Shown here: piece by piece, positions 20,265-54,630 of the stretch | Position numbering within the stretch: position 1 is the first letter of the stretch | Layout of the letters: the number at the start of each line of letters is the position of its first letter | NCBI GenBank assembly: GCA_037043015.1 | Contig: CM073324.1 | Location: 16,396,597-16,460,596, forward strand | Reading direction: 5' to 3' | From: Bryum argenteum | Lineage: Eukaryota; Streptophyta; Bryopsida; Bryales; Bryaceae | Length of the DNA stretch: 64,000 bases | Program-made: the position numbers and the translations under genes | The notes under the pieces: model-generated | Seen by the model: the letters and a program-made list of their open reading frames with translations, nothing else | What the model was told of the DNA's origin: nothing | The model's database searches: none

Positions 20265-20277
20265 GGACGTTGCTACC

Positions 20278-20312
20278 GTGTGAGCGGTGAGAGGTGAGCG
20301 GTAAGATTTCAG
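20278..20312 (+). repeat. left subterminal GTGAGCGGT array
   Basis: Three near-perfect units (GTGAGCGGT, GAGAGGT, GAGCGGT) lie within 50 bp of the element's left end. They match, in inverted orientation, the array at the right end (54566-54616). They are candidate binding sites for the transposase or an accessory protein. Confidence 0.75.
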
Positions 20313-20389
20313 ATTTTTAAGGGCTGACTTTGTATTTTTAGTAAAAAAAATTCTAAAAATAGTATAATTTTTATTAGGGAATAATTCTC

Positions 20390-20409
20390 GAATATTCTCG
20401 AGAATATTC
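20390..20409. other. perfect 20-bp palindrome
   Basis: GAATATTCTCGAGAATATTC is its own reverse complement and sits 125 bp inside the left end of the giant element, surrounded by further GAATATTC words. It resembles heat-shock-element-like NGAAN/NTTCN arrays or a dimeric protein site. The function is unknown. Confidence 0.7.
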
Positions 20410-20711
20410 GAATATTCCAGACTTATTGCCGTGGATTTAGTGACCCAAACCCGTGGAAATAAGGTTCAAATTCCCTGAAATTGGTTAGACTTGAGCTCAA
20501 AACTCGACAGTAAATCAGAATTTGTAAATGTCAAGAGGTTTCTAAGGTAATGTTTCTAAGTGTTTAGTACTCCAAGTTAGACAAATTGGCAAGGTTTGTT
20601 GTACATGTAAGTACTGGTATAACTATATTTAATAAGATGTGAAAAAATATCACATACACCCAATCATAGGACTTACATATGGCGTATAATGATGAGGGGA
20701 TTTAAGGCATT

Positions 20712-23700
20712 CTAATCTGTAGCATGGTCTAGGATTCCTCCCTCCAAAATCTTCTTCACCTCGTTGAAACTAAGAGTAGCCGCGTGGATAAAGAGGTCAG
20801 CGTCCGGATCAAATTTGCAAATCAATACCGTGATGAAGTATAGGTGCTTGCACGGTCGGTATGGATCTCTCCGTCCTAACGAAGATATTGTTTTCTTGAA
20901 CACTGGGCATGAGCAATCCGGGAATTTACTAATTGAAAGTCTATAAACTGCATCCGAATCCGACTCCAACTCTACGATACATCCAAAACCAGGCTGCGGG
21001 ATCATGGTCACCTCCAGAATTTTGGGCTGCATTGAGGTGGCAGACTCAATATTCTTCATGTGCTTTGAAGTCATAGCAGGAATGCATTTCATGTTCTTCG
21101 ATCTTCTTGACCTCGGGTACACGTCCGGCTTCTCCGGGACTGGAATATGGGATAAGTCTCTTGGTGGGGCAACACTATTGAAAGTGCGGTTCGTAGGAAG
21201 CTGTTCTTTTTGGGGTAGTCGAAAGCCCGCATTCTCTAACGCCTCCATTTCATCACGTGTAAGATTAGTGCCTATCTTAACAGGCCATATTGAAGGAATA
21301 GGGGGTCTATCATGGCTTGGAGAGAATGGCTCAATCCACTTGCGACGATGACCCTTCACACACTTGTCAATATCATCCGCACAAAAAAAGAATTGATCAA
21401 TTTTTCTTGGCCCCTCTTGAGGGCGTTGCCATACTCCGGTGTAAGTTGGAGCTGCGGTCGCCTTCCCCATCTGAATAATTCGTGAATCACATCTTTTCTT
21501 ACTCTTTCGCATGATACCCCAACAAGCCTTGGCAGAATTCTCCCTCAAACGGGCAATGTGCCACAACCTCTCGTCTACTTTAGTCTCCTGGACAGCGGTC
21601 ACACGTTCAATACTAGGTCCAGCAAAAGTGGATGGTAATGTCGGTTGCTCCTCAACTTCGTCCTCTTCATGGATAGTTGACAGATTTTCAGCACAGGCTC
21701 GGGTAACCCTTCTCCCAATTCGGGGACGTGAGTAGCTCACGGTGTCAGGTCTGTGTGTTTCATCATCAGCCCCAATCGGAACATCAGCCTTACGTTTCTT
21801 GGATCCAAACACCTCGGACCCCTCAAGGTGGGCGTCGCGGGTACAAATCTTTTCAGCTCCTGGATAGTCAGAAACTGCCTTTGTGAGGCCTGATGGATCG
21901 CCGGTTCGTTGAGCTTTGTAGGCAACACGAAGTAATAGTTCTTCGGATGTTGGTCCGTTACCACCCTTACCACCTCCGTTGAAGTCGTGGTATCCCACAA
22001 CTTGGAGGAAAGCTCGAACATAATCATCAACAGCTGCAACATACAAGTCTCCACCCTTGTTGCCGGACGCTTGCAACCATTTGTTATGGATAGATTCGGC
22101 AAGGTTACATGAAGGCATCCCCGCCAGCTCCTCTGCAGAATATTTATTTTCCTGCAAGGTGCAAAGACTTTTGACTTAGTAACAAAAGAAGTTGATCACG
22201 ATCTCTAGAGCAGGTTAGACTTGCTGCACCGCAAGGCTGGTCTAAAAATAGACTTTTTTTGAATTTTTTTAAAAACTAATTGTTACTGAATAAAATCCAA
22301 AAAAGCAAAATATTCTATACTAAAAAAGTAAATATACTTTACGGATTTACTAGACATCAAATCACGTGTATATAATTGCTACAGTGCCTATGGACTCACC
22401 AATTCCATGAAGCCACCCCACTGCCTATATCGGAAATGCCAGAATGCAAGCCAGTGTTCGAGGTGACCTAATCCAACTTCGGAGGTGGCCTGCGCCGACG
22501 CCCACCACGCTCGGATCGCCCAGTATCTTGTTTCCGCCTCAGCCATGGTGCGTGCATCTTTGTATTGCTTACAAAGATGTCGATGTTGATCCTGCAGCTC
22601 GTGCACGATGTACTGTTTGGTGTGTTTCTCTAGGGATTGCGTCCAATGGAAATAGCAAGTCCGCTCGCGGCCTTCCATGGGCTCTTTAGGGTCTCCGGAG
22701 CCGTAAATGATCCGCACAGCGTTCCAGTTGGCTTGCGCACTGTCGGCCATGAACCCTTGAAACTGCGGCGCTTCCACTCCGATCCTGCCTATGACGTGGT
22801 TTAGGTTCTTCCAGAAGACGATTTGAGCATCTCCGTCTTCAGATTGGAAATCACAGCATGCAATAGTTAGAATGCGGCAGATTTTCGAGTCATAAACGTG
22901 GCATGCCATGGTGGTCCAGTTCTTGACACGCTTGACGTGGTCGAACATTAACCACGCGTGGGACAGGTCTCCTTCGGGCTGCATACGACGAACAAGGTCA
23001 ACACCGCTTCCGGGGCCGACCTCGGACATCTTGAAAATGAACACTTTGTCACTTTCATCTGCCTGGCCCGGGAATTGGTTACGTTGGATGTAAGCCCAGT
23101 TGCTGAGGCCTCGAAGCTTGGTGATCCCATCAATAACACCGTATCTGCGCAAGTGCCTAAAAGTGGTAATACGATTCCTGACGCTCGGAGAGTTCAACTC
23201 TTTACACTGATCGAAGATAGGTTCTAGCTCCTGGAGGGTGAGCTTGGAGGTTACGGGGTCACCTTCTTCACGGAGAAGTAGATTTCCGAGTAAGTCCTTG
23301 CTAGCCTCCATGACTATTTTGGACGTGGTAGCTTGTGGGTTACGTTCTACGTGCTCCTCTATTAACTCATCAATTATTTTACGTGCGCAACTGTAGTCTC
23401 CGACCTTGACAGGATGTTCGTGCGTACCGATATGCACACACGCCCTCTCTTGACTCTCCTCTCCGAATACATAGAATATTTTAGAAGGACATATAGCAAC
23501 ACAAACGGGAGGTTCTTTGCAGATCTTACAGACCAGTGTTGAAGAAGAAGGAGGTGCGTGGCCGACAGAGAAGGGGTCCTTGGTAAAGCCCTCGAACTCC
23601 ACCTCATTCACTTGTGCTCTGCGGTCAGGTCGTAGCAAGAAGCCGCAGTTCTCATTGTGGCATTGAAGATGACCAACACAGGTAGAGTAGCGGAATGACA

Positions 23701-24550
23701 AACCGAGGTTGTTACTGATGTTAGTTGTCATTGTCCTGGTCCACACATGGCCGTCGTATCTTTTGTCCATCCCTTCCATAGATTTGGCTACCTTGACAGC
23801 AGTAGTTCGTAGAACAGGAGGAAGAATGTACAGGACATCACCATTGAAAGTGGGAGGCAGGAAAGAGACGCTGTGAGTACGAATGGTATGGAAATCTATT
23901 TTTTTGAGTATAGTTTTGTTGCGAGACATACTACCTAGTCTACGGAGCGAGGGAAGAATGTTTTTGGGTTTTACAACTTTGGACGCGGGAAGAGAGTAGG
24001 GGGTGGTTCTGAGACTATGTACCGAACCTGAAGAGGGTGGATGCAGATTCGATGAAAGTCGACAGGACTGGATGGACGATTTCCTTTCATCGTCGGATGA
24101 ATCAGAAATATCAATACGGACTTCGAGTCCCGGTTCGACCTTGACACGAGCAAGAACAGGAACAACAGTGGAGATGGTAGAAGAAGTACGAGGAGTGAGG
24201 AGGACGGTGGAGGCGTTCATGACAGAGTCTGTCATGCCAAATATTCGATACTGTCCGGGTCGAAGCTTATACATTTCACAATTACTCTCTAGGTCGACTG
24301 GTTCGACAAGGACGAAGTACTGGACAAGACTAGTGTTTGGATCAAAGACATGTTTTTCTAACCAGAGAGAGGACTCATCAAACCCGAAACGAATTGCTAG
24401 CCAAGACGGAGTGACTTCTGCCACTCCATCCACCCCCGGAGGAATGCAGATGGGAGGACTTAAGTCTTCAGACCTAATGGAAATGACGTCTGCAGCGGGA
24501 GGTAAGGGAGTGGAGGATGCCATGATAGACGTAGGCGAAGAAGACAACAT
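20712..24550 (-). CDS. MULE-type transposase with SWIM zinc finger
   Basis: Two exons on the minus strand, 24550-22400 and 22151-20712, joined in phase 0 across a GT-AG intron, give about 1196 residues. The start is the first ATG (MLSSSPTS). The N-terminal half carries a Cys/His-rich region (C-x5-C-x4-C near the GHLQCHNENCGF segment, then CKICKEPPVC), a likely DNA-binding zinc domain. The catalytic region has the MULE signatures: LMFDHVKR, FMADSAQANWNAV with a likely catalytic Asp, CYFHWTQSL (C-x2-H), and NLAESIHNKW after the splice junction. Near the C-terminus, CSC-x17-CKH forms a SWIM zinc finger, a usual companion of MULE transposases. Assignment to the DDE MULE superfamily is strong; the exact catalytic triad needs alignment. 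It is divergent from gene A across a 0.5-kb spacer, and no stop or frameshift is visible. Confidence 0.9.
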
Positions 24551-25073
24551 CAGCAAGTGCGTGGAGAAAGAGTCTCTGGTACGTTTCCAATGTTCAAATA
24601 TGAGACATTGGTGTACGGTGTTCGCATCCGTAGTGAATAATTATTATACGTAATTTCTTATAATAAAACGTACATATACTCGATACACTTAATCGTGAGC
24701 AGGATCATTTAAAAGCTCCGTACTTATAATACTTCAACCATCTAGGCTGACATAATAGCATTAAGTAGTTAGGATTAAAAATACGAGATGCGCCGATAAA
24801 ATAAGTAGGTGTAGAATGTAAAGAGACGGCGGCAGTCATTGTCAGAGATTTAGGTGGAATATAGTTGCGTTTAAAAGTTAGCTTAGTTTGGATTGTCAGA
24901 CACGGTGATAGCGGCATGTTAGGGAAAACGCGTTGGCTGATTAGGGTTTCTTAGCCGCAAGGGGGGAACATATATAATGGAGTTGAAAATCATTGATCAA
25001 CCTCTTCATTTGCAGTGAGAACACTTGGACTTGTTTAGTGGAACCTGAGAAAAGTTATCTCATTGCAAGGAGT
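24551..25073. promoter_or_regulatory. shared divergent promoter region
   Basis: This 523-bp spacer separates the transposase gene (-) from protein A (+), so it should hold both promoters. TATATAA at 24971-24977 lies about 100 bp upstream of the protein A start. Toward the transposase, AT-rich words such as TATAATAA occur near 24657. GTTGAAAA-x-CATTGATC at about 24982 resembles a segment upstream of gene B (26655), suggesting a shared regulatory module. Confidence 0.5.
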
Positions 25074-25811
25074 ATGGACGAAACTGCTAGCGGTAGTGAG
25101 AGAGGAAAGGAGTTAGGTCTGAAAAAGAAGAAACGGAGGGGTGGTACAAAGTTTACTAATTCTAAAGCACAGAGGCGTAGTGCTATGCGGAGGCGCGATG
25201 AGAGAAGCTCAAGCGGCGATGATCGGGAGCCAGACGGGTACGATTTATTGATCGACGATGATGTGCTACCGCCATTCAGGCGGACTATCAAAATGCGGTC
25301 TCTCAACCTCGATTGTGTCCCGGAGAGTGTCGAGACTGACGAAGCTGAAGAAGAGGAGGAGGAAGGGAGTAGAGGGCAGATAAGGATCTCAAGCGACACA
25401 GTTTGTGCGGATGGGGATGACGATGGAGGTGTGGACTCTACAAATGAGGTAATGAAGTAGTTTTTGTTACGAATAAGTTGTTATTCATAAAAGTTAAACT
25501 ATTTCCGATTACGAGTATGGATTAATATCAACATCTATTGTCTTCAGGATCACAGAGGATTGGAAGAAAAAGATGATCGATCAGGAGACGAAACTACAAA
25601 GTTTGAGGAGAAAAGAGTCACTGATGTGGGGGAGAAAGCGGAAGCCCTTTTACATCAGGAAACACAAAATGATGTAGCGGAAAAAGTTGACACAAGCGCT
25701 AAAGAATTAGAGGAGGAGGTATATGAAAAACCCTACTTCCTGGTTTACTGGGAGGACTTAGGGTTGATTAAGTACACAATCAACGAGGGTCCTATATTCG
25801 GTTCGATGTAG
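25074..25811 (+). CDS. element accessory protein A (charged, unknown)
   Basis: Two exons, 25074-25448 and 25548-25811, join in phase 0 (GAG/gtaatg...cttcag/GAT) to give about 212 residues. The N-terminus is strongly basic (LGLKKKKRRGG, AQRRSAMRRRDE), which could be a nuclear localisation signal. The middle is acidic (EAEEEEEEG, DGDDDGG). The C-terminal part is helical and Glu/Lys-rich and ends in an aromatic segment, KPYFLVYWEDLGLIKY. No known domain is recognised. Its position next to the transposase and its clean splicing suggest a genuine element-encoded gene. A chromatin- or DNA-associated role is only a guess from composition. Confidence 0.6.
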
Positions 25812-26055
25812 TGTTGAGTTTTGACATCAGATGGATTCATGATAGATGTAGACCCAAGTCAAAGTAATATATTTTAGAGTTAATTTCAAGTGGAAATCTT
25901 GTTTGATTATTGGAAAACGTAAAAGAAATAAAACAAGTACTTTTATTTGTTTAATTGTCATTTACGGGTTTAAAGTTCATATTGGTGGTACTTGTGGTAT
26001 TCTGCTAATTGCACTATTCAGGAGTCCAACATGAAATTACATGCCTTATAGGAGT

Positions 26056-26438
26056 GGCCGAGTAGGTGCGGGCGATGTAGGTTAAGAGTGAGGGGCAGGG
26101 GTATACGGGCCGGGTAGGTGGGGGCCGGGTAGGTGCTAAGGTGGACGGGCCGGATACGTGCGAGCCGGGTAGGATTCGCGGGCGGGCAGGGATAGATAAA
26201 GACGCGCTGGGTTGGAGGGGCCGGTCAGGATTCGGCCGGATCTCAATGGCGGGCAGGGCCGGAACTCAACGGCGGGCCGGAACTCAACGGCGGGCCGGAA
26301 CTCAACGGCGGGCCAGCATATTGGGCTCGGCAACGATGTCGCGTGGCGTGGCTGCCGCGGTCAAATAGCCGGACACAGCTCCGAAAATGGGAGGCGCGAA
26401 GTGCCGGACACAGCTCCGATAATGGGAGGCGCCGGAGA
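26056..26438 (+). repeat. GC-rich short tandem repeats between genes A and B
   Basis: Repeats of GGGCCGGGTAGGTG-type words fill 26056-26210. A 19-bp unit (GCCGGAACTCAACGGCGGG) is repeated three times or more at 26259-26318. A 35-bp unit starting GCCGGACACAGCTCCG is present twice at 26369-26438. ORFs here are by-products of the repeats. GC content is far above the surroundings. Confidence 0.65.
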
Positions 26439-26749: not shown

Positions 26750-29700
26750 ATGGCGAGAGTGGAGGAACAAGTTGAAGTGACGAATCAGCCAGAAGAAGAG
26801 AACGTCAAGTTTGATCTGCAGAATGTGAGTACAGAGTCATCCGAGTCCAGCTTGTTTGCAGAATTTTATGCAGAGTATTACAGATCACATAGTACTCAAG
26901 CAGGAGGGGCAACCAAGACGCGCGCCAAATTGGAGGCATTCTACTTGAGACGAAACGGCTTGAAGGTGAGTACGGAATTCCTTGAATGTTCTAAATTGCG
27001 GTCGAATGTTTGTTTTGTTCGTGGTCATCTAGGTGCTCGACCGATGCCATCCTCTTGCATTCCTAGTCACCTTGATTGTAGTGATGTTCGTGCTCTAGCA
27101 CATCCCCTGGCAAGATGCATCGGCATCTCCAAGGGCCGTCGAGGTCATCGTCAAGTTCGGTCCTGTTCGCCGTCGTGGTCCTCAGTTCGTGCCCCCCTGT
27201 TGGTGGTCTTTATCGTGATCTTCGTGGGCAGTTATGAATGCCTTGTACAGCTTGTCGGTGGGCCTCGAGGTCCTCGTCGTGGTCAGCCCTGTCTAACCTG
27301 CGGTACCGAATGTCTGTTCGTGGGGGCGGATTTCAAATTTTGGCTGCCTTGAATGCCTTGTTCAGCTTGTTGGTGGGGCCTCGAGGTCCTCGTCGTGGTC
27401 AGCTCTGTCTAACCTGCGGTACTGAATGTCTGTTTCGTGGGGGCGGATTTCAAATTTTTTTTCTCGAAGAATTCTTCTTTTTTTCCCGATCATGTTCGCT
27501 GTCGTGGTCCTGAGTCGTGGCCCCCTGTTGGTGGTCTTTATCGTGATCTTCGTGGGCAGTTATGAATGCCATGTTCAGCTTGTCGGTGGGCCTCGAGGTC
27601 CTCGTCGTGGTCAGCCCTGTCTAACCTGCGGTACCGAATGTCTGTTTCGTGGGGACGGATTTCAAATTTTTTTCCTCGAAGAATTATTCTTTTTTTCCCG
27701 ATCCTGTTCGCCGTCCTGGTCCTCAGTTCGTGGCCCCCTGTTGGTGGTCTTTATCGTGATCGTTGTGGGCAGTTATGAATGCCTTGTTCAGCTTGTCGGT
27801 GGGCCAATGTGATTACGGTGTGAGCGGTGTGCGGTGAGCGGTGAGCCGTGAGCAGATCTTCCATGAGCAGTGAGCAAATTTCGAGGGAATATTCTGGTCC
27901 AAAAGTGCATATTAGTTGATTTTATTTGAACAAATTTAATATTTGTGTACCCCTAAAGCCGTGGGAAAGCTGCTGATACAAAATAATTTAGACCCTACAA
28001 CCGTGGTGAATTGGAATTTTCCGTTGTTTGCCTCTTAAATGGTTTAGCTAATTTGTGAAAAATAAAAACATATTCTCAGATTACAATAAAGAAAAAGAAG
28101 TATTCGTACTGGAGAGGGGATGGATTGTGTCGGACTAGATGGGAATGGGTTGTGTCATAAGGAGTATCGGAGTGTCGGTGAATACATCCCATGTAAGCTG
28201 CTAGTGATGGAAGCGTGACGGCTGTTGGAGAGACAGGATGGCTCATGGTTCGTGGGAAATATCAAACGGAGGATCATCATGAAGGGTGGATATTGTAAGA
28301 GCAGTCAATGAGTGGAATCCAATTGATCTTGTCAAGTGTGAGTGGGGAAAGAAGATGGTGGTAGAGTTAGATAGCTTGATGCTTCCCTGGTGTTCCTTCA
28401 GAGAGTTGTGATCAATCCTTGCCGAAAGAGAACATAAAGACATAATGTTGCTTGAGAGTAGTGCTAGGCATCATCAGAAGGACACCAACTTGGCGTATAA
28501 GTGCTTTGTTGACCACTACTCCTTGCTATTTAACTGCACCCGTGTAGGCACAAACTCAGTCTCAAGGTGTTCCATGCTATTTCCTTCTGCAGGAGGGTAG
28601 CTGGCGTAGAAGTATTTCTACCAAAAACTTAGAAAGTATCATGGTTTGGTATTGTTGTAGAATGACAAAGAACTACCTCGCATTCTCAGCAACCACAACC
28701 ATTATTTAGCTTCTCAAACCATTTTCGTGTCGTTTTCTGCAATTGCCATCAAGGAGGTTAGTCAACAAAAGAGCAACGTTGGATTGTGTAAGCTCCAAAG
28801 AAGCTAGTAAGAGGATTTACCTACGCAAGGAACTTCTTCGAGATCAACATGCTATACTCAAAATCTAGTACCAATGCAAATTCAGGCAAGTGCTACGCAT
28901 CTCTAGAATCAATCCTAACCTCCAAATGATTCAAGGGAGCCCTTCCGAATCCCACTCAATTGCTTGGACCACCTAAGTCCTTCAGGAACGCGTCAACACA
29001 TGTACATGTACTTCTAAGAATGAGCAATCAACATCCTCAATCATATCATACCATAGTAGAGTGGAATGGCACAACGGTGATCATGAATTGAAAAAGAGAT
29101 GGGGGCACATCTCTTACGGTACTCAGAACAGCTCAACTTCTACTTCAGCCATCTGCTTGATGTAATTAAATTAGCCTGTTGTGAGCCCTCTCAACTAGAA
29201 ACCGAGGAAATCGTTGCCAGCCCAAGGGCTCATTAGCCAAGTCGAGCGGCATGCTGCCCTAACCTGTTTACGCAAAAAAAAAAAAAAAAAAAAAAATGAC
29301 TTACCATTTGTCACTACCTTCCAACGACAACTTACCACATCCCATGATCCCACCCCATGACTCCACCCCCTTTTACTTTTTCCTCTATTTATTTTCCTTC
29401 ATCCCTTTATTTTCCCACTCTTCTTCCACATCCACCATATCCCATTATTCCCTTTTTACTACAATAACTACTATTTTTTTGAAGTCTTTTTGCTTTGATT
29501 TCTGTTACGTGTCATTCAAGTAAGAACTTTCCCATTCTTCCTAGTCATTTTCTAATTTTAAAATCCCATGAAACATAATTCAATAATAAAGTAGTTTTTA
29601 AATCAATATCATAATTATTAATCTTACCCTTTCAACTAATTTGTAATAAATATACAAATTAAAACTAAAACTTTAAACATGAAATTAGTTATAGTGAACA

Positions 29701-44700: not shown

Positions 44701-47700
44701 CAAATTTTATTCCTCGAAGAGATCTTATTTTTCCCCCGATCCTATTCGCTGTCGTGGTCCTGAGTTCGTGGCCCCCTCTTGGTGGTCTTTATCGTGATCT
44801 TCGTGGGCAGTTATGAATGCCTTGTTCAGCTTGTTGGTGGGCCTCGAGGTCCTCGTCGTGGTCAGCCCTGTCTTACCTGCGGTACCCAATGTTTGTTTCG
44901 TGGGGGGGGGGGATTTCAAATTTTGGCTGCCTAGAGTGCCTTGTTCAGCTTGTTTGGTGGGGCCTCGAGGTCCACGTCGTGGTCAGCCCTGTCTAACCTG
45001 CGGTACCGGATGTCTGTTCATGGGGGCGGATTTCAAATCTTGGCTGCCTTGAATGCCTTGATCAGCTTGTTGGTGGAGCCTCGAGGTCCTTGTCGTGGTC
45101 AGCTCTGTCTAACCTGCGGTACCGAATGTCTCATTCGTGGGGACGGATTTCAAGTTTTTTTCCTCGAAGAATTCTTCTTTTTTTCCCGATCGTGTTCGTC
45201 GACGTGGTCCTGAGTTCGTGGCCCCCTATTGGTGGTCTTAATCGTGATCTTCGTGGGCTGTTATGAATGCCTTGTTCAGCTTGTCGGTGGGCCTCGAGGT
45301 CCTCGTCGTGGTCAGCCCTGTCTAACCTGCGGTACCGAATGTCTGTTTCGTGGGGGCGGATTTCAAATTTTTTTTCTCGAAGAATTCTTCTTTTTTTCCC
45401 GATCCTGTTCGTTGTCGTGGTCCTGAGTTCGTGGCCCCCTGTTGGTGGTCTTTATCGTGATCTTCGTGGGCAGTTATGAATGCCTTGTTCAGCTTGTTGG
45501 TGGGGCCTCGAGGTCCTCGTCGTGGTCAGCCCTGTCTAACCTGCGGTACCGAATGTCTGTTTCGTGGGGGCGGATTTCAAATCTTGGGTGCCTTGAATGC
45601 CTTGTTCGGCTTGTCGGTGGGCCTCGAGGTCCTCGTCGTGCACAGCCCTGTCTGACCTGCGGTACCGAATGTCTGTTTCGTGGGGACGGATTTCAAATTT
45701 TTTTCCTCGAAGAATTCTTCTTTATTTACCGATCGTGTTCGCCGTCGTGGTCCTGAGTTCGTGGCCCCCTGTTGGTGGTCTTAATCGTGATCTTCGTGGG
45801 CTGTTATGAATGCCTTGTTCAGCTTGTCGGTGGGCCTCGAGGTCCTTGTCGTGGTCAGCCCTGTCTTACCTGCGGTACCGAATGTGTGTTTCGTGGGCGC
45901 GGATTTCAAATTTTTCGCTGTCTTCAATGCCTTGTTCGACTTGTCGGTGGGCCTCGAGGTCCTCGTCGTGCACAGCCCTGTCTGACCTGCGGTACCGAAT
46001 GTCTGTTTCGAGGGGACGGATTTCAAATTTTTTTCCTCGAAGAATTCTTCTTTTTTTACCGATCGTGTTCGCCGTCGTGGTCCTGAGTTCGTGGCCCCCT
46101 GTTGGTGGTCTTAATCGTGATCTTCGTGGGCTATTATGAATGCCTTGTTCAGCTTGTCGGTGGGCCTCGAGGTCCTCGTCGTGGTCAGCCCTGTCTAACC
46201 TGCGGTACCGAATGTTTGTTTCGTGGGGACGGATTTCAATTTTTGGCTGTCTACAATGCCTTCTTCAGCTTGTTGGGGGGGCCTCGAGGTCCTCGTCGTG
46301 GTCAGCCCTGTCTAACCTGCGGTACCGAATGTCTGTTCATGGGGGCGGATTTCAATTTTTGGCTGCCTTGAATGCCTTATTCAGCTTGTTGGTGGGGCCT
46401 CGAGGTCCTCGTCGTGGTGAGCTCTGTCTAACCTGCGGTACCGAATGTGTGTTTCGTGGGGGCGGATTTCAAATTTTTTTCCTCGAAGAATTCTTCTTTT
46501 ATTCCCGATCCTGTTCCCCGTCGTGGTCCTTAGTTCGTGGCCCCCTGTTGGTGGTCTTTATCGTGATCTTCGTGGGTAGTTATGAATGCCTTGTACAGCT
46601 TGTCGGTGGGCCTCGAGGTCCTCGTCGTGGTCAGCCCTGTCTAACCTGCGGTACCCAATGTCTGTTTCGTGGGGGCGGATTTCAAATTTTTTTCCTCGAA
46701 GAATTCTTCTTTTTTTCCCGATCCTGTTCGCCGTCGTTGTCCTTAGTTCGTGGCCCCCTGTTGGTGGTCTTTATCCACATCTTCGTGGGCAGTTATGAAT
46801 GCCATGTTCAGCTTGTCGGTGGGCCTCGAGGTCCTCGTCGTGGTCAGCCCTGTCTATCCTGCGGTACCGAATGTCTGTTCGTGGGGGCGGATTTCAAATT
46901 TTGGCTGCCTTCAATGCCTTGTTCAGCTTGTTGGTGGGGCCTCGAGGTCCTCGTCGTGGTCAGCCCTTTCTAACCTGCGGTACCGAATGTCTGTTCGTGG
47001 GGCGGATTTCAAATTTTGGCTGCTTTGAATGCCTTGTTCAGCTTGTTGGTGGGGCCTCGAGGTCCTCATCGTGGTCAGCCCTGTCTACCTGCGGTACCTA
47101 ATGTCTGTTCGTGGGGGCGGATTTCAAATTTTTTCCCTGAAGAAATTCTTCTTTTTTTCCCGATCCTGTTCGCCGTCGTGGTCCTTTGTTCGTGGCCCCC
47201 TGTTGGTGGTCTTTATCGTGATCTTCGTACGCAGTTATGAATGCCTTGTTCAGCTTGGTCATGGGGCCTCGAGGTCCTCGTTGTGGTCAGCCCTGTCTAA
47301 CCTGCGGTACCGAATGTCTGTTCGTGGGGGCGGATTTCAAATTTTGGCTGCCTTGAATGCCTTGTTCAGCTTGTTGGTGGAGCCTCGAGGTCCTCGTTGT
47401 GGTCAGCTGTGTCTAACCTGCGGTACCGATTGTCTGTTTTGTGGGGGCGGATTTCAAATTTTTTTCCTCGAAGAATTCTTCTTTTTTTTCCGAACATTGC
47501 TTACTGTGAATGTGATAGCACTTTCTGTGAAGTTCAATCCTGTTCGCCGTCGTGCTCCTCAGTTCGTGGCCCCCTGTTGGTGGTCTTTATCGTGATCTTC
47601 GTGGGCTGTCTTGAATGCCTTGTTCAGCTTGTCGGTGGGCCTCGAGGTCCTCGTCGTGGTCAGCCCTGTCTAACCTGCGGTACTGAATGTCTGTTCGTGG

Positions 47701-48477
47701 GGGCGGATTTCAAATTTCGGCTGCCTTGAATGCCTTATTCAGCTTGTTGGTGGGGCCTCAAGGACCTCGTCGTGGTCAGCCCTGTCTAAGTTTCGGTACC
47801 GAATGTTTGTTCGTGGGGGCGGATTTCAAATTTTTGCTGCCTTGAACGCCTTGTTCAGCTTGTTGGTGGGGCCTCGAGGTCCTCGTCGTGGTGAGCTCTG
47901 TCTAACCTGCGGTACCGAATGTCTGTTTCGTGGGGGCGGATTTCAAATTTTTTTTCTCGAAGAATTCTTCTGTTTGAAAAGTTGTATTTAGTGATAGCTT
48001 TTCTTACATCTCATACCTATACTGGATCTAAAATACCTATATCGCTTGTATCTTGTTAACTATTAGGGCCATGTGTTATGATGTATAGTAATATCTCATT
48101 AATTAGGTTCATTGTATTTGAATTTCTATTCATATTTGTGTTGAGTGATCCACGTGGTAATGCAGGATCCTGACAAAGTTAATGTTGCCGCTAAAGAGGA
48201 GGAATCTGATGCTGACAGCGACTTATCGGTTTTGAATAAGGATGTTTTGGTTTTTGTAGAGTCTCGGCGTTTAGAAACAACGTTGTCATCGGTCCCGGAA
48301 ACTCTTTCCCCACCTGTCAGTCACACTTCACGTGATGACTTCGATCGGTTTGCACGAGCAGTTAACATTAAAATTAAAAAGAATGAGGCCCAAGCTAGAC
48401 TTACTGAAGCGAGAGCATTCGCTAGACTTGCACCCAGACGTTTTCCGCGACTTGCAGCGAAGTTGAAATCCATATAG
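26750..48477 (+). CDS. possible element accessory protein B spanning a ~21-kb satellite intron
   Basis: Exon 1 (26750-26965, ATG then ARVEEQVEVTNQPEEE) ends at a strong donor AAG/gtgagt. An open segment 48166-48477 follows an acceptor tgcag/GATCCT and continues in the same phase to a stop. Together they give about 175 residues: an acidic start, YYRSHSTQAGG, AFYLRRNGLK, then SDADSDLSVLNKDV and a basic coiled-coil-like end (KKNEAQARLTEARAFARL). No domain is recognised. The linking intron would contain the whole satellite and the nested 12.4-kb element. Without the nested copy it would still be about 8.8 kb. The two segments could instead be separate genes. RNA evidence is decisive. Confidence 0.4.
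27180..27804 (+). repeat. satellite array, left block
   Basis: Tandem units of about 115 bp contain GGCCTCGAGGTCCTCGTCG, CTAACCTGCGGTACCGAATG and GGGGGCGGATTTCAAATTTT. They alternate with a longer variant carrying CTCGAAGAATTCTTC and GTTGGTGGTCTTTATCGTG. This block is continuous with 40173-47980 apart from the nested insertion. Many overlapping ORFs arise from the units and are not genes. Confidence 0.9.
28100..29297 (+). other. unrecognised segment ending in poly-A
   Basis: There is no supported gene. The segment ends in an uninterrupted run of about 24 A (29274-29296), as left by retroposition. No target duplication was found and no reverse transcriptase is visible. A LINE/SINE-type or processed-transcript insertion is possible. 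Confidence 0.35.
29298..30640. other. very AT-rich stretch, nothing recognised
   Basis: Strongly AT-rich, non-coding on inspection. Two loosely repeated segments with GTGATTAC...GGAGTTTA occur near 30505-30570. Confidence 0.4.
30850..31205. repeat. 24-bp minisatellite
   Basis: About 13 to 14 imperfect copies of a 24-bp unit (TTCCCTCGCCTCTGCTGGCACCAA-like). Because 24 is divisible by three, each frame stays open and encodes an 8-residue repeat (for example SPLLAPIP). I regard the ORFs at 30659-31301 as consequences of the repeat rather than genes. Confidence 0.8.
31690..33190 (+). repeat. ~191-bp tandem array, graded divergence
   Basis: Units contain GTTGCTCTAAGTGTTCTAGG, CCACCACAATGCATGCCATT and GAAGATTTGGTGGCTTGTC. 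Units at 32590-33170 are nearly identical with a 191-bp period. Units toward 31690 are increasingly diverged, as if homogenisation proceeds from the right. Inverted copies lie at 34010-34446, forming a long inverted repeat with this array. Confidence 0.85.
33195..33500 (+). repeat. 21-bp minisatellite (left arm of inverted repeat)
   Basis: About ten copies of GGTTGGTGCCGGCAGAGGGGT, continuing directly from the 191-bp array. The same unit recurs in inverted orientation at 33830-33990. Confidence 0.8.
33780..34446 (-). repeat. inverted copies of the 21-bp and 191-bp repeats (right arm)
   Basis: TGCCGGCACCAACCACCCCT-type units (33830-33990) are followed by just over two inverted 191-bp units (34010-34446). 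They mirror 32900-33500 around a spacer near 33640. The region could fold as a hairpin of roughly 0.6-1 kb arms. Confidence 0.8.
34447..34622. mobile_element. 176-bp MITE candidate
   Basis: The ends are inverted over 13 or more bp: GGTCACACGTACC on the left and GGTACGTGTGACC on the right, with further partial pairing inside. It is inserted at the end of an inverted 191-bp unit. No clear target duplication. Non-coding. Confidence 0.65.
35077..35309. mobile_element. TTAA-family MITE, copy A
   Basis: Terminal inverted repeats CCCTTAAACGTCA and TGACGTTTAAGGG, with TTAA on the left and CTAA on the right. The TIR resembles those of elements at 52198-52457 and 62124-62485. TTAA flanks suggest piggyBac-like target choice, but no transposase is present and the internal sequences differ. 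Confidence 0.6.
35330..35470 (+). repeat. GCCGGTGCCGGC-rich short repeats
   Basis: Imperfect 20-22 bp units built on GGTGCCGGCNNGNGCATGGCC occur beside the captured gene fragment. They create an open frame on the minus strand (35263-36102) that I do not consider a gene. Confidence 0.55.
35641..36666 (+). pseudogene. captured cysteine-rich gene fragment
   Basis: Exon-like segment 35641-36129 encodes spaced cysteines: CETCVEKDVNNCGDCGKTC, GGQCRYKCKDGFSNCDNN, CVNGKRCEPVC and GRGNCDKNI. This fits the repeated pattern GCET...NCGxCGxxC known from STIG1-like and other secreted Cys-rich proteins. Breaks: TAG at 35846-35848 where a Trp would fit, an 18-bp-scale tandem duplication near 36021-36056 that shifts the frame, and a TAG at about 36116. 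A GT donor at 36130 and an AG at 36536 join in phase to 36537-36666 (SNGVCGEKCSEG, then IPDEPP), ending at a stop. So a genomic, intron-containing host fragment was captured in the nested element. Family assignment is by cysteine spacing only. Confidence 0.6.
36667..37640. other. nested-element filler, nothing recognised
   Basis: No coding region is supported. The short ORFs overlap on both strands. Confidence 0.3.
37900..38245 (+). repeat. ~156-bp tandem repeat
   Basis: Two to three imperfect units with GTGTCCCGAGT, CCTCCATGT and GCTTGCTGTGACC-like words. Overlapping ORFs on both strands follow from GC-rich composition and are not supported as genes. Confidence 0.55.
38385..38469 (+). pseudogene. 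possible second captured Cys-rich fragment
   Basis: One open segment ends with KTCGCTGGKSC, DLHCYL and LNKCFV, then a TGA. The cysteine density suggests the end of a small secreted protein taken up by the nested element. No family is recognised, and the upstream reading is repeat-derived. Confidence 0.25.
38470..40120. other. right part of the nested element
   Basis: Mostly non-coding. Words resembling the Cys-rich fragment (GTGTCTCGATACAAGTGTGTG) occur near 38690. The last 400 bp, including TGATGACATCAGCCCTAATT near 39846, resemble the right end of the outer element (TGATGACGTCAGTCCTAATT near 54272). Confidence 0.45.
39735..39790 (-). promoter_or_regulatory. tRNA/SINE-like box-B segment in nested element
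   Basis: On the minus strand GGCCCGAGTTCAAGC resembles an RNA polymerase III box B or tRNA T-arm. A similar segment lies at the same relative place in the outer element (54100-54145). It does not fold into a complete tRNA by eye. Confidence 0.3.
40173..47980 (+). repeat. satellite array, right block
   Basis: Continuation of the 115-bp / ~215-bp satellite, about 7.8 kb. A higher-order repeat is present: about 41640-43345 and about 43640-45348 correspond with a 2.0-kb offset. Units are GC-rich with a conserved CCTCGAGGTCCTCGTCG core. The last unit ends near 47975 within CTCGAAGAATTCTTC. It lies in the presumed intron of gene B. Confidence 0.9.
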
Positions 48478-48741
48478 TTTCATGACAACATTACTTGATA
48501 CTTACATCATTTTTCTACATTATGAACGGATTCAAATTTAATTTCATATTTTATTATTTATTTGATTTTTTCTTATTATGGTTTTCCCGATATTGTATTC
48601 TTATGTCTTATTTATCAGATGAGAATATCCGACGTACTATCTCTTTAAGACGAAGAAGATACCGTACTTCCTTAGAACTCTCCATCTTCAGTTCCTCATG
48701 GAGATAATAGCGTTCTCGAAGCACAAGACAACTTAGAAGGC

Positions 48742-51700
48742 ATGTCTTCTGCAATTCCGCGCGGTAGTCCGATCCAATCCGAACCTCTTCTGGAAGCTGC
48801 GCAAGATGTCGATGAACACGAGTCCCCTTCAGATGACGAATTGTCTCCTATGCCTGGAAGTGTGAACGTGGGCATCGTTCACATGCCTCCTCATCTTCAA
48901 AACAAAGACCCCGATTGGAGTGCGAACGAGATGCGAATGATTCACAAAAGTGATTCTATTGCAATTATAAACAGGTTCCGTTTCAAACCAGTAAAGAAGT
49001 CACGTATGCTCATTCCATTGTGCCGATTGGTGTCTTACCCAAAAGTTCGACCTATCTCCGAACAAGATGTCCGGAAACTCGAAAACGAGGTCAATAAAGG
49101 TTACCGAGAAGGAGATCGGGTAATGTATGTCTCTCCATTCGATAGGAAAGGAAGAGATAAAAAAGTTGGTGCAGAAGATGGTGTGTGGGAGAATCCGCTA
49201 TGGAGGGCTGCAAACAAAGAGTTCGAGAAGACGTTGTTATCGGATCCTGATCTGCATGACCTCAGCGGCAAATACTTCTACGTATATGAAGGTAATCACC
49301 GTTTGACGGCGTGGATGCGTCACATTGAGAGGTACCATCTGATGGATCCATCCTGGTACATCTCAGTTGATTGCATCGTACTCGATACACGCGGCGAAAG
49401 CAATCTCCTTCTTGACGCCATGAATGACATCAATTGGTAAGTACTTCAAACATTATTTTTATTAAGTTCAATTCTCTGAAACCTCGACGTACTCTCATAT
49501 TTGTTTCTGCTATATAGGTCTACCGAACATGACTATGTCGAAGATAGTTTGTGTGCAAAGCTGCAACGCATGAGCAAGTTCGGTAAGTTGAAACTTGAAG
49601 ACTTCAAGGACCTCATTACTCCGGAGGATTACCAAATTTGCTTAAAAGCTAAAGTAAAAAAGGAAACATGGTATCCTGTCACGGTGGACGTCTTCGTCAA
49701 GTTCTTATATGCGGTAAGACTCCTTAATACTTACTAAACAGTCCTATCTTCTACTCATTTCATTACAATTTCTTACTACCTCTTCTCTGCCATGTAGAGG
49801 CGGTTAGCGAAAGCATCGGATAATGCCGAAGCTAATTACTACGCCACTACCCCTAAAGAAAAGCAATCAGGGCCAGGAGTTTGGAGTGCCATGGATAGCG
49901 CCATCGAAGCCGAAATCAAATCGATTCGAGACAAACAGTTCAACAAGATGGTTGCTGTGGCCAATATCCAGCTTGGGAAAGTATTCCCGAAAGAGGTAAA
50001 CATTCCTCTCTACTTACTTTCTATTCAGACTCAATACTGTTATTCACTAAAACTGGAATTAACTACTTCGATTTGTTCTATGCCCAGATCTATTCTCACT
50101 ACAGCCACAACCTGAAGCCCGATATGACAATCGAACGGTTGCACATGGTTGCTACCACGAATGTCCATTTTGATTTTAAAGGAAAGTGGCTCCAATGGTG
50201 GAATGCGCCAACTGATGTTCGTCGATCAGTCCACTTCCCACTAGAGCGCCCTATGAAGGATAAAACGTTGCAAGCATTTCTGCATCGCGCTTCTCTCTGG
50301 GCTCAGGTATATTGTACTGAACTTCTGGGCAATGGTAAGCTTGGGGTATCACTTTTTGGACACACTAATTAGGTTATTATTATTGAAAGCCTCCAAAGTT
50401 TGTCTAATTTATTCATTTTAATCAAGTAAAAAGACCCTAAAATAGAAAATAAAATATCATGCACCTCACTGAAATCAAAGTATATATGCCTATAGATTTT
50501 CTCTTAGATTTTTTATTTTTTTTGGATCCATTCATAGATGAGGGAAAAAGTGCTGAATTTGGGGATTTGCAGGCATTATAGTGCACAATGAATTAATTTT
50601 TTTATAATTAAATAAATTATTTTGTATTCTATACAAGAAGATGTATGTCATATTCAAAAATTATATTAAAATAAAAATGGTTGATATTCCATTTGCTTGG
50701 TTCTATGGATTTTAGGTTATTGGGACATGACTTACTTTTTCAACTAAAAAATCAAATAAAATTACTTCAAAATATTTTTTTTAATTTTTAATTTTTTTTC
50801 TTGATACATTATAAGTATAGACAACTAAAACCACATCTAATGAAGTCTTATTGTATTACAGTTTAAAAATGGATATGTTTGACACACCAGCATAGAGTGC
50901 AATTGTTCATGGGACAACCTTTTTGGGTACCCCAACCAGACCATCACCCTTCTGTCATTACATTACTCCCGTCATCGACTATGTACTTTTTCAAACTTGC
51001 TCTACTTTATTGCAGTTACAACAATCTCTCGAAACTGAAATACAACAATTTCTAGAGGATGGCAAAATCCATATTCAGTGGTCCGATGCGGTACTAACGC
51101 CATCCGCGTACGTTGAGAAATGGAGATTGCTTTTATGGGAAAATGCCTTCGGCAACTACCTTGCTCCAAACGCCAGCCCCAAGTTCTTAAAAGGATCCGA
51201 TATTCAAAAGATTAGTGGTGGCAAGGTTACTATTAAACGGCTCTTATTTCGGTACGTATCACTTTGCTTCTCATTTTTCCACTCAATATGCGGAGTACCA
51301 AAATTTGTATTGCATACTAAATTCTTTCATTGAAATATGTATTCTTGACTCTAGGTACTTGAAACAAGAGCTTCTTAGCAAAGGAGCCTTGCCTTCGTGG
51401 TCCATTCCAGCTGAGCTCGAGGACGTCACCGTTTCAAATGATCCATCTAGCATCTTCTCCGAAGCTCAACAGGAACGGTTCTCCAACTCACAATTGCTGA
51501 CCGGTGGTTGGTTTCTCGAGTGCAACGATAACTTCGTGCACAAGGAAGAGAGACATCTGCTTCGGAACCTCAGTTCAAACTCACCCGGCCATGCACCTAT
51601 GGAGATCGACGACGATGATGACGAAGACGTCTCCATTTTACCAAGTGCACCCGTCTCACCCTCCGAACCATCTTCACCGGTTGCACAGCTCAGAACCCGA

Positions 51701-53799
51701 GCAAACAGAAAGCGGCGCACCGGTGCTGCGCAGCCTGTAGTTGATTTTGAACAAGAACCGGATGAAATCGCTCCGCTCCATCAAGACATTGCAGATCCAA
51801 AAGAAGCTGATTTGACTCAGGCTTCACATGGAGCGACCAACAATGCTGGTAGACGCGGTCGACAACTGACTCAGATTTCTACAGGCGCTCTTACGAATGC
51901 GGGGTCCCCCCCTCAGTCTTTCACAGTCGACCACAACTCCGGAAAGAAGTTCGCTTCGCTCCCATTTCTTGAATCGAAGCATGTTGGACAGTGCTCGTCT
52001 TCGGAGATTACTATTCCCCTCCCAATGTACTTGGAAAAAGGGGATATTGGAGCTTCTGTCCAAAAGGCAGCTCATGAAACAAAAGATTGGGACACGCAAG
52101 TCATGGACATCATCAACCACATCAGAAAGGTATTGTGTTTTACATCTTTTATTACATTATTTTCGTACTCATATTTTCATTGGAACACATCTCTTAACCC
52201 CTAAAAATCCACAATGTTTCGGGAGCTTGAAATCCCAACACAGACCACTATGTACTAATGGGGGTACGTCCAATATTTTTGGAAATTTTTGATAATTTCA
52301 ACCGTAGGATCTTGAAGTAGACTACCATTGGTAGTAGTGTGAAAATTTTCAACCGTTGGATCATCACTAGATGTGAGATCATAACGTTTGAAGTTGACTG
52401 TAAATTATTTTTTCCTTCACCGTAAACGCCGAATCGGTGGCCGTGGTCGTTTAGGGGTTAAAACATGTCTAACTTTTTGTGATTTCCAAAGATTGGCAAA
52501 GACTGGAAGTACCCATGTAAGGAGATGGGCACGAAACACCCGCATCCCGGCATAGACCTAATCTACGCAGACGTTCCCGAGAACTTACCCGTTCCTGACG
52601 TGTCGCCCGTCGAAATCCCTTCATGGAACAAGAGAGAGAAAAGCTACTTCGAGAGTGTGTTCTTTTTTGCTTTCTACAACTTGACAGACGAGGGTGCGAT
52701 ACTTGTTATGCATCCCAAGGACCGTCGAGTCGAAAAAGCTCTCGATGCCGAGTCAAAGGCTTTCGAATTCCGAATGGTGCGAGATTGGTGGGGATATAAT
52801 CCCATGCCAATGGCCTCGACGAACCCTCACGTGAAAACGGTATGATGTTCAATCTGCAATCAAATCATATTTCATGTTTGTTTACAACGTTTTTTTATAT
52901 CTTTCTCATGTATTGAATTTTGCAGACTCACAACTTCCACATTAAGGTCTTCGTTCGGAAGTCTTTTGCCACCAGATTCTCCATAAGACAGGTTGCGAAA
53001 GAGTACGCAGGTGTGCCCATTCTTCCCGACAAGGAGGACCATGTCTTCAATTTTGCGAGCAATGATTCCATTCGTAAGAAGGAAGATGGTACTCCGTGGC
53101 GTGGCTCGCGAGAGAAGGATCCCTCCTTCATCCAATGTTTTATTGATTCTCTCACAGGCGAGCGGGGAATTGTCTTTGACTGGAGCCCTAGTACAGGTTA
53201 GTTGTTGCTAATACCAACTGTCATTCAACTTATTCAATATTGTTGTCTTGATGTTGGTTGTTGGTATGTAGGGGCTTCCGTGATTGCGTGCGCGCACTCG
53301 AACCGTCATCTTATCGCTGTTGAAGCTGATGAAGAGATATTTGACGGTCTTTTATCGGCATACGTGGATAGTACCGCTTTTGAGGAAGAAAGCGGCGATT
53401 CGGTTCCTGATTATGACTACGACAGTGACACTTCTGAACCGCTTCAGAAGAAGCTACGCCCAACATTTTGTGCGTCCTTATCTATTACTTTCTACCCTCT
53501 CTTTTGTCACCGTCACTTGAACGAAATTTATTGGTATTGAATTCTTCTGTACTTTTAGGATCGCAGGTTCCAATCGACGTTTCATTGGCGACGGAAGTCT
53601 CTTCAGCAGTCCTCCGCAAACTTTCACCCTTCCATCTTATGCGGAGCGGATAGCTCAAGAATTTGTCGCTGCCCCTTCTCCCATCTTATCGGACAGTAGT
53701 AGACGTCGACGCTTTAGCTCAAGAGTGCTTGCGTTTATAGACGATGAGGCTGATCAGTGTGACCAACACTTTAATGGTCGTTCACCATCAGCATCGTAG
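48742..53799 (+). CDS. ParB/Srx-fold domain fused to beta-type DNA methyltransferase-like domain
   Basis: Exons: 48742-49436, 49518-49713, 49798-49995, 50088-50306, 51016-51251, 51355-52129, 52492-52839, 52926-53196, 53272-53469, 53567-53799. All GT-AG, all in phase, about 1122 residues. Residues ~85-245 fit a ParB/Srx fold: MLIPLCRLV, the signature YEGNHRLTAW, DCIVLDT and DAMNDIN. An acidic low-complexity linker follows (DDDDDEDV, then Ser/Pro). Residues ~780-1010 follow the permuted order of N4C/N6A methylases: DLIYADVPEN (motif IV position), GAILVMHPKD, REKDPSFIQCFID, then FDWSPSTG (motif I position) and AVEADEEIF (motif II). Canonical DPPY and DPFxGSG are replaced, so catalysis is doubtful. 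ParB-methylase pairings are common in phages and bacteria. Here the gene is intron-rich and sits on a transposon. Two MITEs lie in its introns. The start is the first ATG after an upstream in-frame stop; a 5' exon is possible. Confidence 0.8.
50327..50949. mobile_element. 623-bp MITE, copy 2, in an intron
   Basis: Same length and ends as the copy at 11387-12009, about 98% identical by inspection. TTCT flanks at 50323-50326 and 50950-50953 (possibly TTCTG). It lies wholly within the intron between exons 4 and 5 of the ParB-methyltransferase gene, so the reading frame is preserved. Confidence 0.92.
52198..52457. mobile_element. TTAA-family MITE, copy B, in an intron
   Basis: Ends CCCCTAAA and TTTAGGGG are flanked by TTAA on both sides (52194-52197, 52458-52461). 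It lies in the intron between exons 6 and 7 of the ParB-methyltransferase gene. Confidence 0.7.
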
Positions 53800-54545
53800 G
53801 TGTTTTTATCGTCTGGTTGTTTTGTTTAGACTATTTAGGGTCATATAGGTGCCCTACACCATTGGTCATACATGTTGTTTTTTTATACGTTTCTATATCT
53901 ATTTATGACGTTTACCTATTAATTATGAACGGTCAACGCGTTCTCAATTAATAAATAAATGTTTAAGTTTTAAATTCAAGCAAACTACAAGTTTCAAAAT
54001 GTTGCTTTATTTCTAATTGGAGTGATTTAATCTAGCCAATGTTGGTTGAGGCTTTGGTTCAGTAGTTGTATAGCTCAGGATAGCTACTGTACGACGCACT
54101 GCAACGCTCAAACGAGCCCCACGAGAATCGAACTCGGACCACTGCAATGCCACGTGAATGTCTTTCTGTACACCTTACAAGGAGACACGGAAGGACGACT
54201 TGTAGTTATAAACTTCAGATTATATAAACCGGGGCATTTACGTATAATTTTGATAAATGTAATAGGAAATTGATGACGTCAGTCCTAATTATACTCTAGA
54301 GCTTCAAATTTTTAATGTAAATTTATTGAATTGTATGCATTACACATGATGATGTCACCCTTAATTTAATTAACTTTTATTTAAACTTGCAAATGTGGAT
54401 TATTTATTAAATATTGTATGTCCTCAATATCATGAAAAGAAAAGGAAAAAGGACCTATATTCACGGTTTTGGGTAATTTTATGCCTAAAAATAACCATTT
54501 CAAAATTTCAGAACCACCCATACCATGGTAATAGGGTCATTAACT
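53800..54545. other. right subterminal region of the giant element
   Basis: Non-coding. It should contain the 3' untranslated region of the ParB-methyltransferase gene. TGATGACGTCAGTCCTAATT at about 54272 and the tRNA-like segment at 54100-54145 have counterparts in the nested element. Confidence 0.5.
54085..54160 (-). promoter_or_regulatory. tRNA/SINE-like A- and B-box segment
   Basis: On the minus strand TGGCATTGCAGTGG resembles a box A and GAGTTCGATTCTCGTGG a box B / T-arm, but with almost no spacing between them. This suggests a rearranged tRNA-derived SINE fragment. No full tRNA cloverleaf is visible. Confidence 0.35.
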
Positions 54546-54565
54546 TTTAAATTTTTTTTTTCTTA

Positions 54566-54616
54566 CCGCTCAAACTTTACCGCTCACCGCTCACCGCTCA
54601 CCGCTCAACGCTCACA
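54566..54616 (-). repeat. right subterminal GTGAGCGGT array
   Basis: ACCGCTC is repeated about seven times (ACCGCTCACCGCTCACCGCT core), the inverted counterpart of the left-end array. The nested element carries the same units at 27818-27855 and 40127-40157. Sequence constraint at all four ends suggests protein binding. Confidence 0.8.
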
Positions 54617-54630
54617 CCGGTGATTTCCCC

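What the first reader, a model, noticed from the sequence alone, without database searches (positions are those of the whole stretch)
20265..54630. A 34.4-kb Mutator-like element with an exact 10-bp duplication and accessory genes
The identical 10-mer ATGTTTGGCA flanks inverted, GTGAGCGGT-bearing ends. The interior encodes a clean MULE/SWIM transposase plus up to three non-transposase genes. Most MULEs are a few to about 20 kb. The closest known analogy I can name is the plant VANDAL group, which carries accessory genes such as the anti-silencing factor VANC. This may be an undescribed giant MULE lineage of seedless plants.
Basis: partly seen in the sequence, partly recalled or inferred. Interest (0 to 1): 0.95.

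Follow-up and report, generated by a model that had tools for sequence, protein, structure and literature searches.

The report
Plant transposon with methyltransferase-like cargo gene
This 34-kb stretch is a real jumping gene of a seedless land plant, a copy (swollen by repeats and a second jumping gene inside it) of a family that usually measures 11-16 kb and carries, beside its transposase, a well-preserved gene resembling DNA-modifying proteins of bacterial viruses, which it may use to escape silencing by its host.

Summary
In detail: an element at 20265-54630 with an exact 10-bp target duplication. Four other places in the genome show its two flanks contiguous, i.e. empty sites. All 12 copies with both ends read have 10-bp duplications (10 exact, 2 at 9/10).

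The giant-lineage reading fails. Ten other copies read are 11.3-15.9 kb. This one is large because one intron holds about 8.4 kb of minisatellite plus a nested 12.4-kb element of a second family. The one other giant read (38.1 kb) is swollen by arrays and nested LTR retrotransposons.

The unusual part is the second gene: about 1,170 residues, ten exons modelled, under purifying selection (medians between subfamilies: dN 0.06-0.26, dS 0.59 to saturated). Its C-terminus resembles phage N6/N4 DNA methyltransferases with altered catalytic motifs; a ParB-like match is weak. Its first intron is a largely copy-specific tandem array: 62% tandem versus 2% elsewhere in ten copies, as described for Arabidopsis VANDAL elements. 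The nested element's family, and some copies, carry an ATRX-type ADD zinc finger. Self-targeted anti-silencing is my best guess, untested. MULE membership is plausible but no profile confirms it.

The parts
20255..20264 (.). left 10-bp target-site duplication ATGTTTGGCA
   Evidence: single copy in 3 of 4 empty sites
54631..54640 (.). right 10-bp target-site duplication ATGTTTGGCA
20265..54630 (+). whole element, 34,366 bp
   Evidence: ends and duplication; empty sites
20265..20330 (+). left terminus GGACGTTGCTACCG plus GTGAGCG heptads
   Evidence: 40 scored of 275 candidate places in the genome
54535..54630 (-). right terminus GGGGAAATCACCGG (minus strand) plus heptads
   Evidence: 40 scored of 482 candidates
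22388..24640 (-). transposase, first ORF (TP1), with D / D / C-x2-H / E motif order (motifs assigned by eye)
   Evidence: 62 scored of 1751 candidates
20712..22175 (-). transposase, second ORF (TP2), SWIM-like C-x-C ... C-x-H near its end
   Evidence: SWIM E 0.6
24987..25811 (+). conserved acidic/basic reading frames (gene 2), function unknown
   Evidence: tblastn in 11 of 13 elements
26750..26965 (+). likely first exon of the accessory gene, followed by GTGAGT
   Evidence: tblastn in 13 of 13 elements, 42-100% identity
26966..48204 (+). inferred first intron of the accessory gene, holding minisatellite and nested element
27160..27804 (+). minisatellite, left part (about 117/213-bp units)
27805..40172 (+). 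nested 12,368-bp element of family N (CAATGTGATTACGG...); no transposase or ADD gene found in this copy
   Evidence: duplication GTCGGTGGGC at 27795-27804 and 40173-40182
40183..47970 (+). minisatellite, right part (about 117/213/330-bp units)
48205..53474 (+). accessory gene, exons E2-E11 (48205-48462, 48619-49437, 49519-49713, 49798-49995, 50088-50306, 51013-51252, 51356-52129, 52492-52836, 52944-53198, 53274-53474)
   Evidence: this copy has 2 in-frame stops in the first part of its second listed exon
48679..49437 (+). exon with the weakly ParB-like region (EGNHRLTAWMRH)
   Evidence: 150 scored of 1227 candidates; phrog_1033 in 3 of 3 members, best E 0.036
52492..53474 (+). three exons of the N6/N4 methyltransferase-like part

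Best explanation
Shown: 20265-54630 is one insertion of a high-copy cut-and-paste-type DNA transposon with 10-bp target duplications, inverted ends carrying GTGAGCG heptads, a two-ORF transposase, and a long conserved accessory gene whose first intron is a tandem array that largely differs between copies. The window copy is 34.4 kb because that intron holds a large array and a nested element of a related family. Inferred: the transposase acts by a DDE mechanism as in Mutator-like elements. Inferred, my best guess at function: the accessory protein (weakly ParB-like middle, N6/N4-methyltransferase-derived and possibly inactive C-terminus) binds the element's own repeats in the intron array and/or the terminal heptads and keeps the element free of silent chromatin, as VANC proteins do for Arabidopsis VANDAL elements, so that transposase and accessory gene stay expressed.
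For: Identity: empty sites; 12 of 12 copies with 10-bp duplications, 10 exact; inverted ends; same gene order in other copies. Size: nested element in the array with its own 10-bp duplication and 17 uninterrupted units of the same sequence context; standard copies 11.3-15.9 kb. Accessory gene under constraint: medians dN 0.06-0.26 and dS 0.59 to saturated between subfamilies. Methyltransferase likeness: phrog_3008 in 4 of 5 members, best E 6.3e-6; PF01555 in 3 of 5, best E 0.0016. VANDAL-like anatomy: 61.8% of the first intron tandem against 2.1% of the rest, ten copies; VANC targets are rapidly changing tandem repeats, also within introns of the accessory genes (PMC5735166, passages; PMC10398659, passages).
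Against: No expression, methylation or binding data. ParB likeness is weak: no Pfam hit, no ParB among PDB profile matches. PDB profile searches of the methyltransferase part gave none either, and the PF01555 matches stay under its cut-off. No short motif is shared by all 12 arrays; the best 9-mer is in 6 of 12. One standard copy has only 12% array in that intron. The transposase has no Pfam MULE match; 0 of 52 PF10551 loci lie at the 62 transposase loci. The accessory gene of the window copy has two early stops.
Confidence: 0.55

Rival explanations
1. The accessory protein is a transposition cofactor: it loads on the heptad arrays and brings the ends together or guides insertion, without an anti-silencing role.
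For: Heptads at both ends of 12 of 12 elements (1-4 left, 3-16 right in the first 130 bp). The protein is carried by copies with and without an intact transposase.
Against: The relatives' transposase in family N stands beside ADD genes, and I saw no accessory gene of this type in the one N copy read, 9.6 kb, although N has similar heptad ends. Does not explain the intron arrays.
Confidence: 0.3
2. The protein is an active DNA amino-methyltransferase that marks the element's DNA (6mA or 4mC).
For: Methyltransferase-like C-terminus with motif IV and motif I regions in the order of the permuted class.
Against: The catalytic motif reads D-V/A-P-E instead of (D/N/S)-P-P-(Y/F/W), and the motif I glycine pattern is changed, in 5 of 5 aligned members (the canonical motifs are recalled).
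Confidence: 0.12
3. One reading: an undescribed lineage that transposes as a 30-40 kb unit.
For: Two intact copies of 34.4 and 38.1 kb with exact duplications; two more candidate pairs at 29 and 35 kb not read.
Against: Interiors differ: this copy has a nested N element and 117-bp arrays, the other two LTR elements with LTRs 98-99% alike and 168-bp arrays. Ten of ten other copies read are 11-16 kb, though I chose them for a left end near the gene.
Confidence: 0.06
4. The extra genes are passively captured host fragments, as in Pack-MULEs.
For: The ADD domain is related to ATRX-type proteins and could be host-derived.
Against: The accessory gene is full length, multi-exon and under purifying selection in two diverged subfamilies.
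Confidence: 0.04

Closest known systems
VANDAL elements of Arabidopsis (VANA transposase, VANB, VANC anti-silencing)
   Same: Transposase plus accessory genes; tandem repeats that vary between copies, including introns of the accessory genes (PMC5735166, passages).
   Different: The survey table lists 9-bp duplications for VANDAL (PMC6446971, passages); here 10 bp. Accessory protein is methyltransferase-like; homology to VANC was not tested directly. Pfam found no other domain in it.
Mutator-like elements (MULE superfamily) in general
   Same: 8-11 bp duplications (PMC6446971), inverted ends, zinc-finger-bearing DDE-type transposase by motif order.
   Different: No PF10551 match; the genome's 52 PF10551 loci are others.
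ParB-N6/N4 methyltransferase fusions of phages and prophages
   Same: A protein with both kinds of region; such fusions are reported as frequent in phages (PMC12704722, passages).
   Different: Here it is intron-bearing, in a plant transposon, with altered catalytic motifs; ParB match weak.
Retrotransposons with cytosine methyltransferases in dinoflagellates and charophytes
   Same: A transposable element carrying a DNA methyltransferase-type gene (PMC5890265, abstract and outline).
   Different: Retrotransposons and C5 enzymes of host origin; here a DNA transposon and an amino-methyltransferase-like fold.
Rehavkus MULEs
   Same: PHD-type finger and minisatellite (PMC6446971 table); compare the ADD fingers of family N.
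   Different: 9-bp duplications, arthropods and annelids, minisatellite placed at the C-terminus of the gene.

Membership tests
Mutator-like elements (MULE) | target-site duplication of 8-11 bp | tested here: met
   12 of 12 copies with both ends read, 10 bp, 10 exact and 2 at 9/10
Mutator-like elements (MULE) | terminal inverted repeats | tested here: met
   score 63 against at most 37 in 200 shuffles; imperfect and short
Mutator-like elements (MULE) | MULE transposase domain (PF10551) | tested here: not met
   no hit in hmmscan; 0 of 52 PF10551 loci at the 62 scored transposase loci; hhalign against five MULEs of this genome not significant (shallow alignments)
Mutator-like elements (MULE) | DDE residues with C-x2-H | tested here: inconclusive
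   motif order present by eye in this family and in family N; catalytic region 112 of 202 identical; no structure obtained
Mutator-like elements (MULE) | SWIM zinc finger | tested here: inconclusive
   E 0.6 and 0.11 for family N, both under the cut-off; C-x-C ... C-x-H present in both
VANDAL/VANC | copy-variable tandem repeats in introns of the accessory gene | tested here: met
   arrays in the first intron of 13 of 13 elements, 161-11,116 bp; 62% against 2%
VANDAL/VANC | accessory protein homologous to VANC | not tested
   no VANC sequence was compared
VANDAL/VANC | accessory protein causes loss of DNA methylation of the family | not testable with these tools
   needs experiment
N6/N4 DNA methyltransferase | sequence likeness to the family | tested here: inconclusive
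   PHROG E 6.3e-6, PF01555 E 0.0016 under cut-off; no methyltransferase in PDB profile search
N6/N4 DNA methyltransferase | catalytic (D/N/S)-P-P-(Y/F/W) | tested here: not met
   D-V/A-P-E in 5 of 5 aligned members; canonical motif recalled
ParB/Srx fold | ParB domain match | tested here: inconclusive
   phrog_1033 in 3 of 3, best E 0.036; Pfam none; PDB none
Pack-MULE | captured gene fragments without selection on their protein | tested here: not met
   purifying selection

The most novel reading that the evidence does not exclude
A lineage of plant DNA transposons has taken up a phage-type ParB/amino-methyltransferase-like protein and turned it, with its catalysis altered, into a self-recognising anti-silencing factor that reads copy-specific minisatellites in its own first intron, while sister elements use ATRX-type ADD readers: a solution convergent with VANC, and a transposase lineage outside the known MULE profiles.
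Probability: 0.3. Interest if true: 0.9.

Novelty: new variant of a known kind. Interest (0 to 1): 0.72.

Why it matters
Anti-silencing by transposons is well worked out in one case that I know of, VANC in Arabidopsis. A second, unrelated protein with the same intron-array anatomy in an early-diverging land plant would make the idea testable as a general rule: that transposons carry a self-specific binding protein and a fast-changing array as its target. It would also show a prokaryotic-type DNA-modifying fold put to a new use in a eukaryotic element, and add a transposase lineage that curated profiles miss, so that annotation pipelines would overlook a family with over a thousand candidate places for its transposase and accessory exon (candidates, not scored copies).

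Tried and rejected
Giant lineage: rejected after reading ten standard copies and one more giant. Misassembly or chance duplication: rejected by empty sites. Pfam/NCBIfam/PHROG/PDB naming of the accessory protein: partial only. Relatives in viral contigs (47 pattern matches) and prokaryote genomes (32 pattern matches): none confirmed. Profile comparison of the transposase with five MULEs of the same genome: not significant. A motif common to all intron arrays: none; best 9-mer in 6 of 12, more than in shuffles of 3-base blocks. Literature searches that showed no report of such an element; I saw only listings of the first rows (20 of 38, 15 of 52, 5 of 5, 15 of 46, 15 of 58, 8 of 61) and the passages named elsewhere; subscription journals and preprint servers are not held. 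The organism was not identified by name.
Full report
The observation. The window is G000:C4:16396597-16460596 of a 258.8-Mb genome in 25 contigs. The 10-mer ATGTTTGGCA stands at 20255-20264 and 54631-54640, just outside inverted ends. It occurs four times in the window (0.24 expected), so it is not decisive alone. The ends align with score 63 against at most 37 in 200 shuffles.

Empty sites. The two flanks joined with one copy of the 10-mer were searched in the genome: besides the two flanks themselves there were four matches, 86-89% identical over about 285 bp, running without a break across the junction. Aligned, three of four carry the exact 10-mer once and the fourth a variant. The flank is thus a repeat whose other copies lack the element, and the two flanks were once contiguous.

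Other copies. The left 66 bp gave 40 scored matches of 275 candidates, the right 96 bp 40 of 482, the transposase ORF 62 of 1751 (34 of 62 without in-frame stops by my count of that table), the main accessory exon 150 of 1227, the methyltransferase-like exon 150 of 964. These are capped lists, so lower bounds. Of 150 accessory-exon hits, 68 have a scored methyltransferase exon 1-8 kb downstream (60 of 68 at about 2.9 kb), 15 a scored right end within 12 kb, and 20 a scored left end within 40 kb. I fetched ten of those twenty, chosen for a left end within about 11 kb, so the size range is biased to compact copies. All ten plus the window have a 10-bp duplication, nine exact and two at 9 of 10; an eleventh fetched element on C7 has an exact one. 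A region on C5 was left out of this count because its left end was not in the fetched stretch.

Size. The ten standard copies measure 11,272-15,929 bp. Against them the window copy has about 21 kb extra between exon 1 and exon 2 of the accessory gene. That stretch holds a minisatellite of about 117-bp, 213-bp and 330-bp units (27160-27804 and 40183-47970) and, inside it, a nested 12,368-bp element (27805-40172) with its own inverted ends and a 10-bp duplication GTCGGTGGGC. The uninterrupted context of that site occurs 17 times in the array. Without array and nested element about 13.6 kb remain, the standard size. The other giant read, 38,135 bp, is likewise swollen: a 5.6-kb insert bounded by 490-bp repeats 98.6% alike, an 8.1-kb one bounded by 1.3-kb repeats 98.2% alike, a further 4.6-kb insert and 168-bp arrays.

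Two subfamilies and a sister family. Five of the ten copies (A) share the transposase at about 90% identity; five (B) share ends and accessory gene (64-76% in the coding parts by blastn) but not the transposase, except for remnants in one of them. B copies carry instead, at the left end, an ADD-type zinc finger gene: found in 5 of 5 B (broken in one) and 0 of 7 A copies. Its best PDB match is the ADD domain of ATRX, E 3.9e-14 over the domain; Pfam hits stay under cut-off. The genome has 280 candidates for it, 150 scored. The nested element belongs to another family, N: its left end has 40 scored matches of 91 candidates, and 24 of 40 have an ADD hit within 3 kb inside on the same strand (which used 90 of the 150 ADD rows, weaker ones dropped). 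Six of these 90 lie tail to tail within 3 kb of a scored methyltransferase exon and 8 at a left end of the first family. One N copy read (9.6 kb) has two ADD genes and a transposase 32-35% identical to this one, with frame breaks, and sits inside an accessory-gene exon of the first family. The window's N copy has lost these genes or never had them.

The transposase. No Pfam MULE match; SWIM only at E 0.6 and 0.11. The genome has 52 PF10551 loci and none lies at the 62 transposase loci. Comparison with five of those MULEs was not significant. By eye both families share D (MFDHV), D (GFMAD/GFMGD), C-x2-H and a downstream E region; the catalytic region is 112 of 202 identical between the families. 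I therefore call it MULE-like, not a proven MULE.

The accessory gene. A model of ten exons (E2-E11) and a likely exon 1 gives about 1,170 residues in A and B. Medians over A-B pairs: dN 0.06-0.26; dS 0.59 (first modelled exon) to above 1 in the other exons, with one exon saturated in 29 of 35 pairs. Within A the transposase ORFs have mean dN 0.083 and 0.029, dS 0.229 and 0.123. The C-terminal 260 residues match phage DNA methyltransferase families (phrog_3008 in 4 of 5 members, best E 6.3e-6) and PF01555 (3 of 5, best E 0.0016, under cut-off). The expected catalytic motif reads D-V/A-P-E and motif I FDWS-x-STG in 5 of 5, so activity is doubtful. A ParB-like match is weak (phrog_1033, 3 of 3, best E 0.036), with no Pfam or PDB support. 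The window copy has two early stops.

The intron arrays. Tandem repeats cover 15,483 of 25,068 bp (61.8%) of the first intron in the ten standard copies and 2,342 of 113,726 bp (2.1%) of the rest of the elements. Per copy the intron value runs from 12% to 83%. Periods differ (67, 105-117, 168, 264, 318 bp and multiples), and the array units of only a few copies resemble each other. No motif is common to all 12. In Arabidopsis, VANC targets form tandem repeats that change fast, among them repeats in introns of VANC21 and VANB21 (PMC5735166, passages). That likeness is my main reason for proposing self-targeted anti-silencing; it is an analogy, not a test.

Context. Published sizes seen: Pack-MULEs up to 7 kb in one study (PMC6431247, passages); arthropod MULEs 1.4-10 kb (PMC13359780, listing only). 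The MULE survey PMC6446971 has no occurrence of moss, Physcomitrella or Selaginella. ParB-N6/N4 methyltransferase fusions are known from phages (PMC12704722, passages).

Verdict. A real transposon copy, well observed; ordinary as to giant size, unusual as to its accessory gene, its intron arrays, the ADD genes of its sister family and a transposase outside the curated profiles.

Noticed in passing
contig C1 of the genome: C1 is 44.1 of 258.8 Mb but holds 61 of 150 scored accessory-exon hits and 56 of 150 methyltransferase-exon hits; it may be a sex chromosome or otherwise repeat-rich.
   Followed up: no
L049:146-9601 (C2:27592545 on): Family N copy inserted in the ParB-like exon of a first-family element, with two ADD genes and a diverged transposase.
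   Followed up: partly
genome-wide, PF00504 search: 90 matches to the chlorophyll a/b-binding family, many short, clustered partial ones, as expanded ELIP genes would give (my inference); ELIP expansion is known to me from desiccation-tolerant plants.
   Followed up: no
window 31855-34447: Inside the nested element, 191-bp units stand in inverted orientation around a GC-rich 21-bp array.
   Followed up: no
window 50327-50949 and 52196-52458: Stretches of about 620 and 260 bp in introns of the accessory gene that are absent from the other A copies; probably small insertions.
   Followed up: no
window 62119-62489: A 371-bp piece outside the element, 91% like a piece inside the right part of the copy at C1:20.36 Mb; a small mobile repeat.
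   Followed up: no
C5:1595500-1622500 (L041-L043): Two first-family units side by side; in the second the ADD gene lies tail to tail just 3' of the accessory gene.
   Followed up: partly
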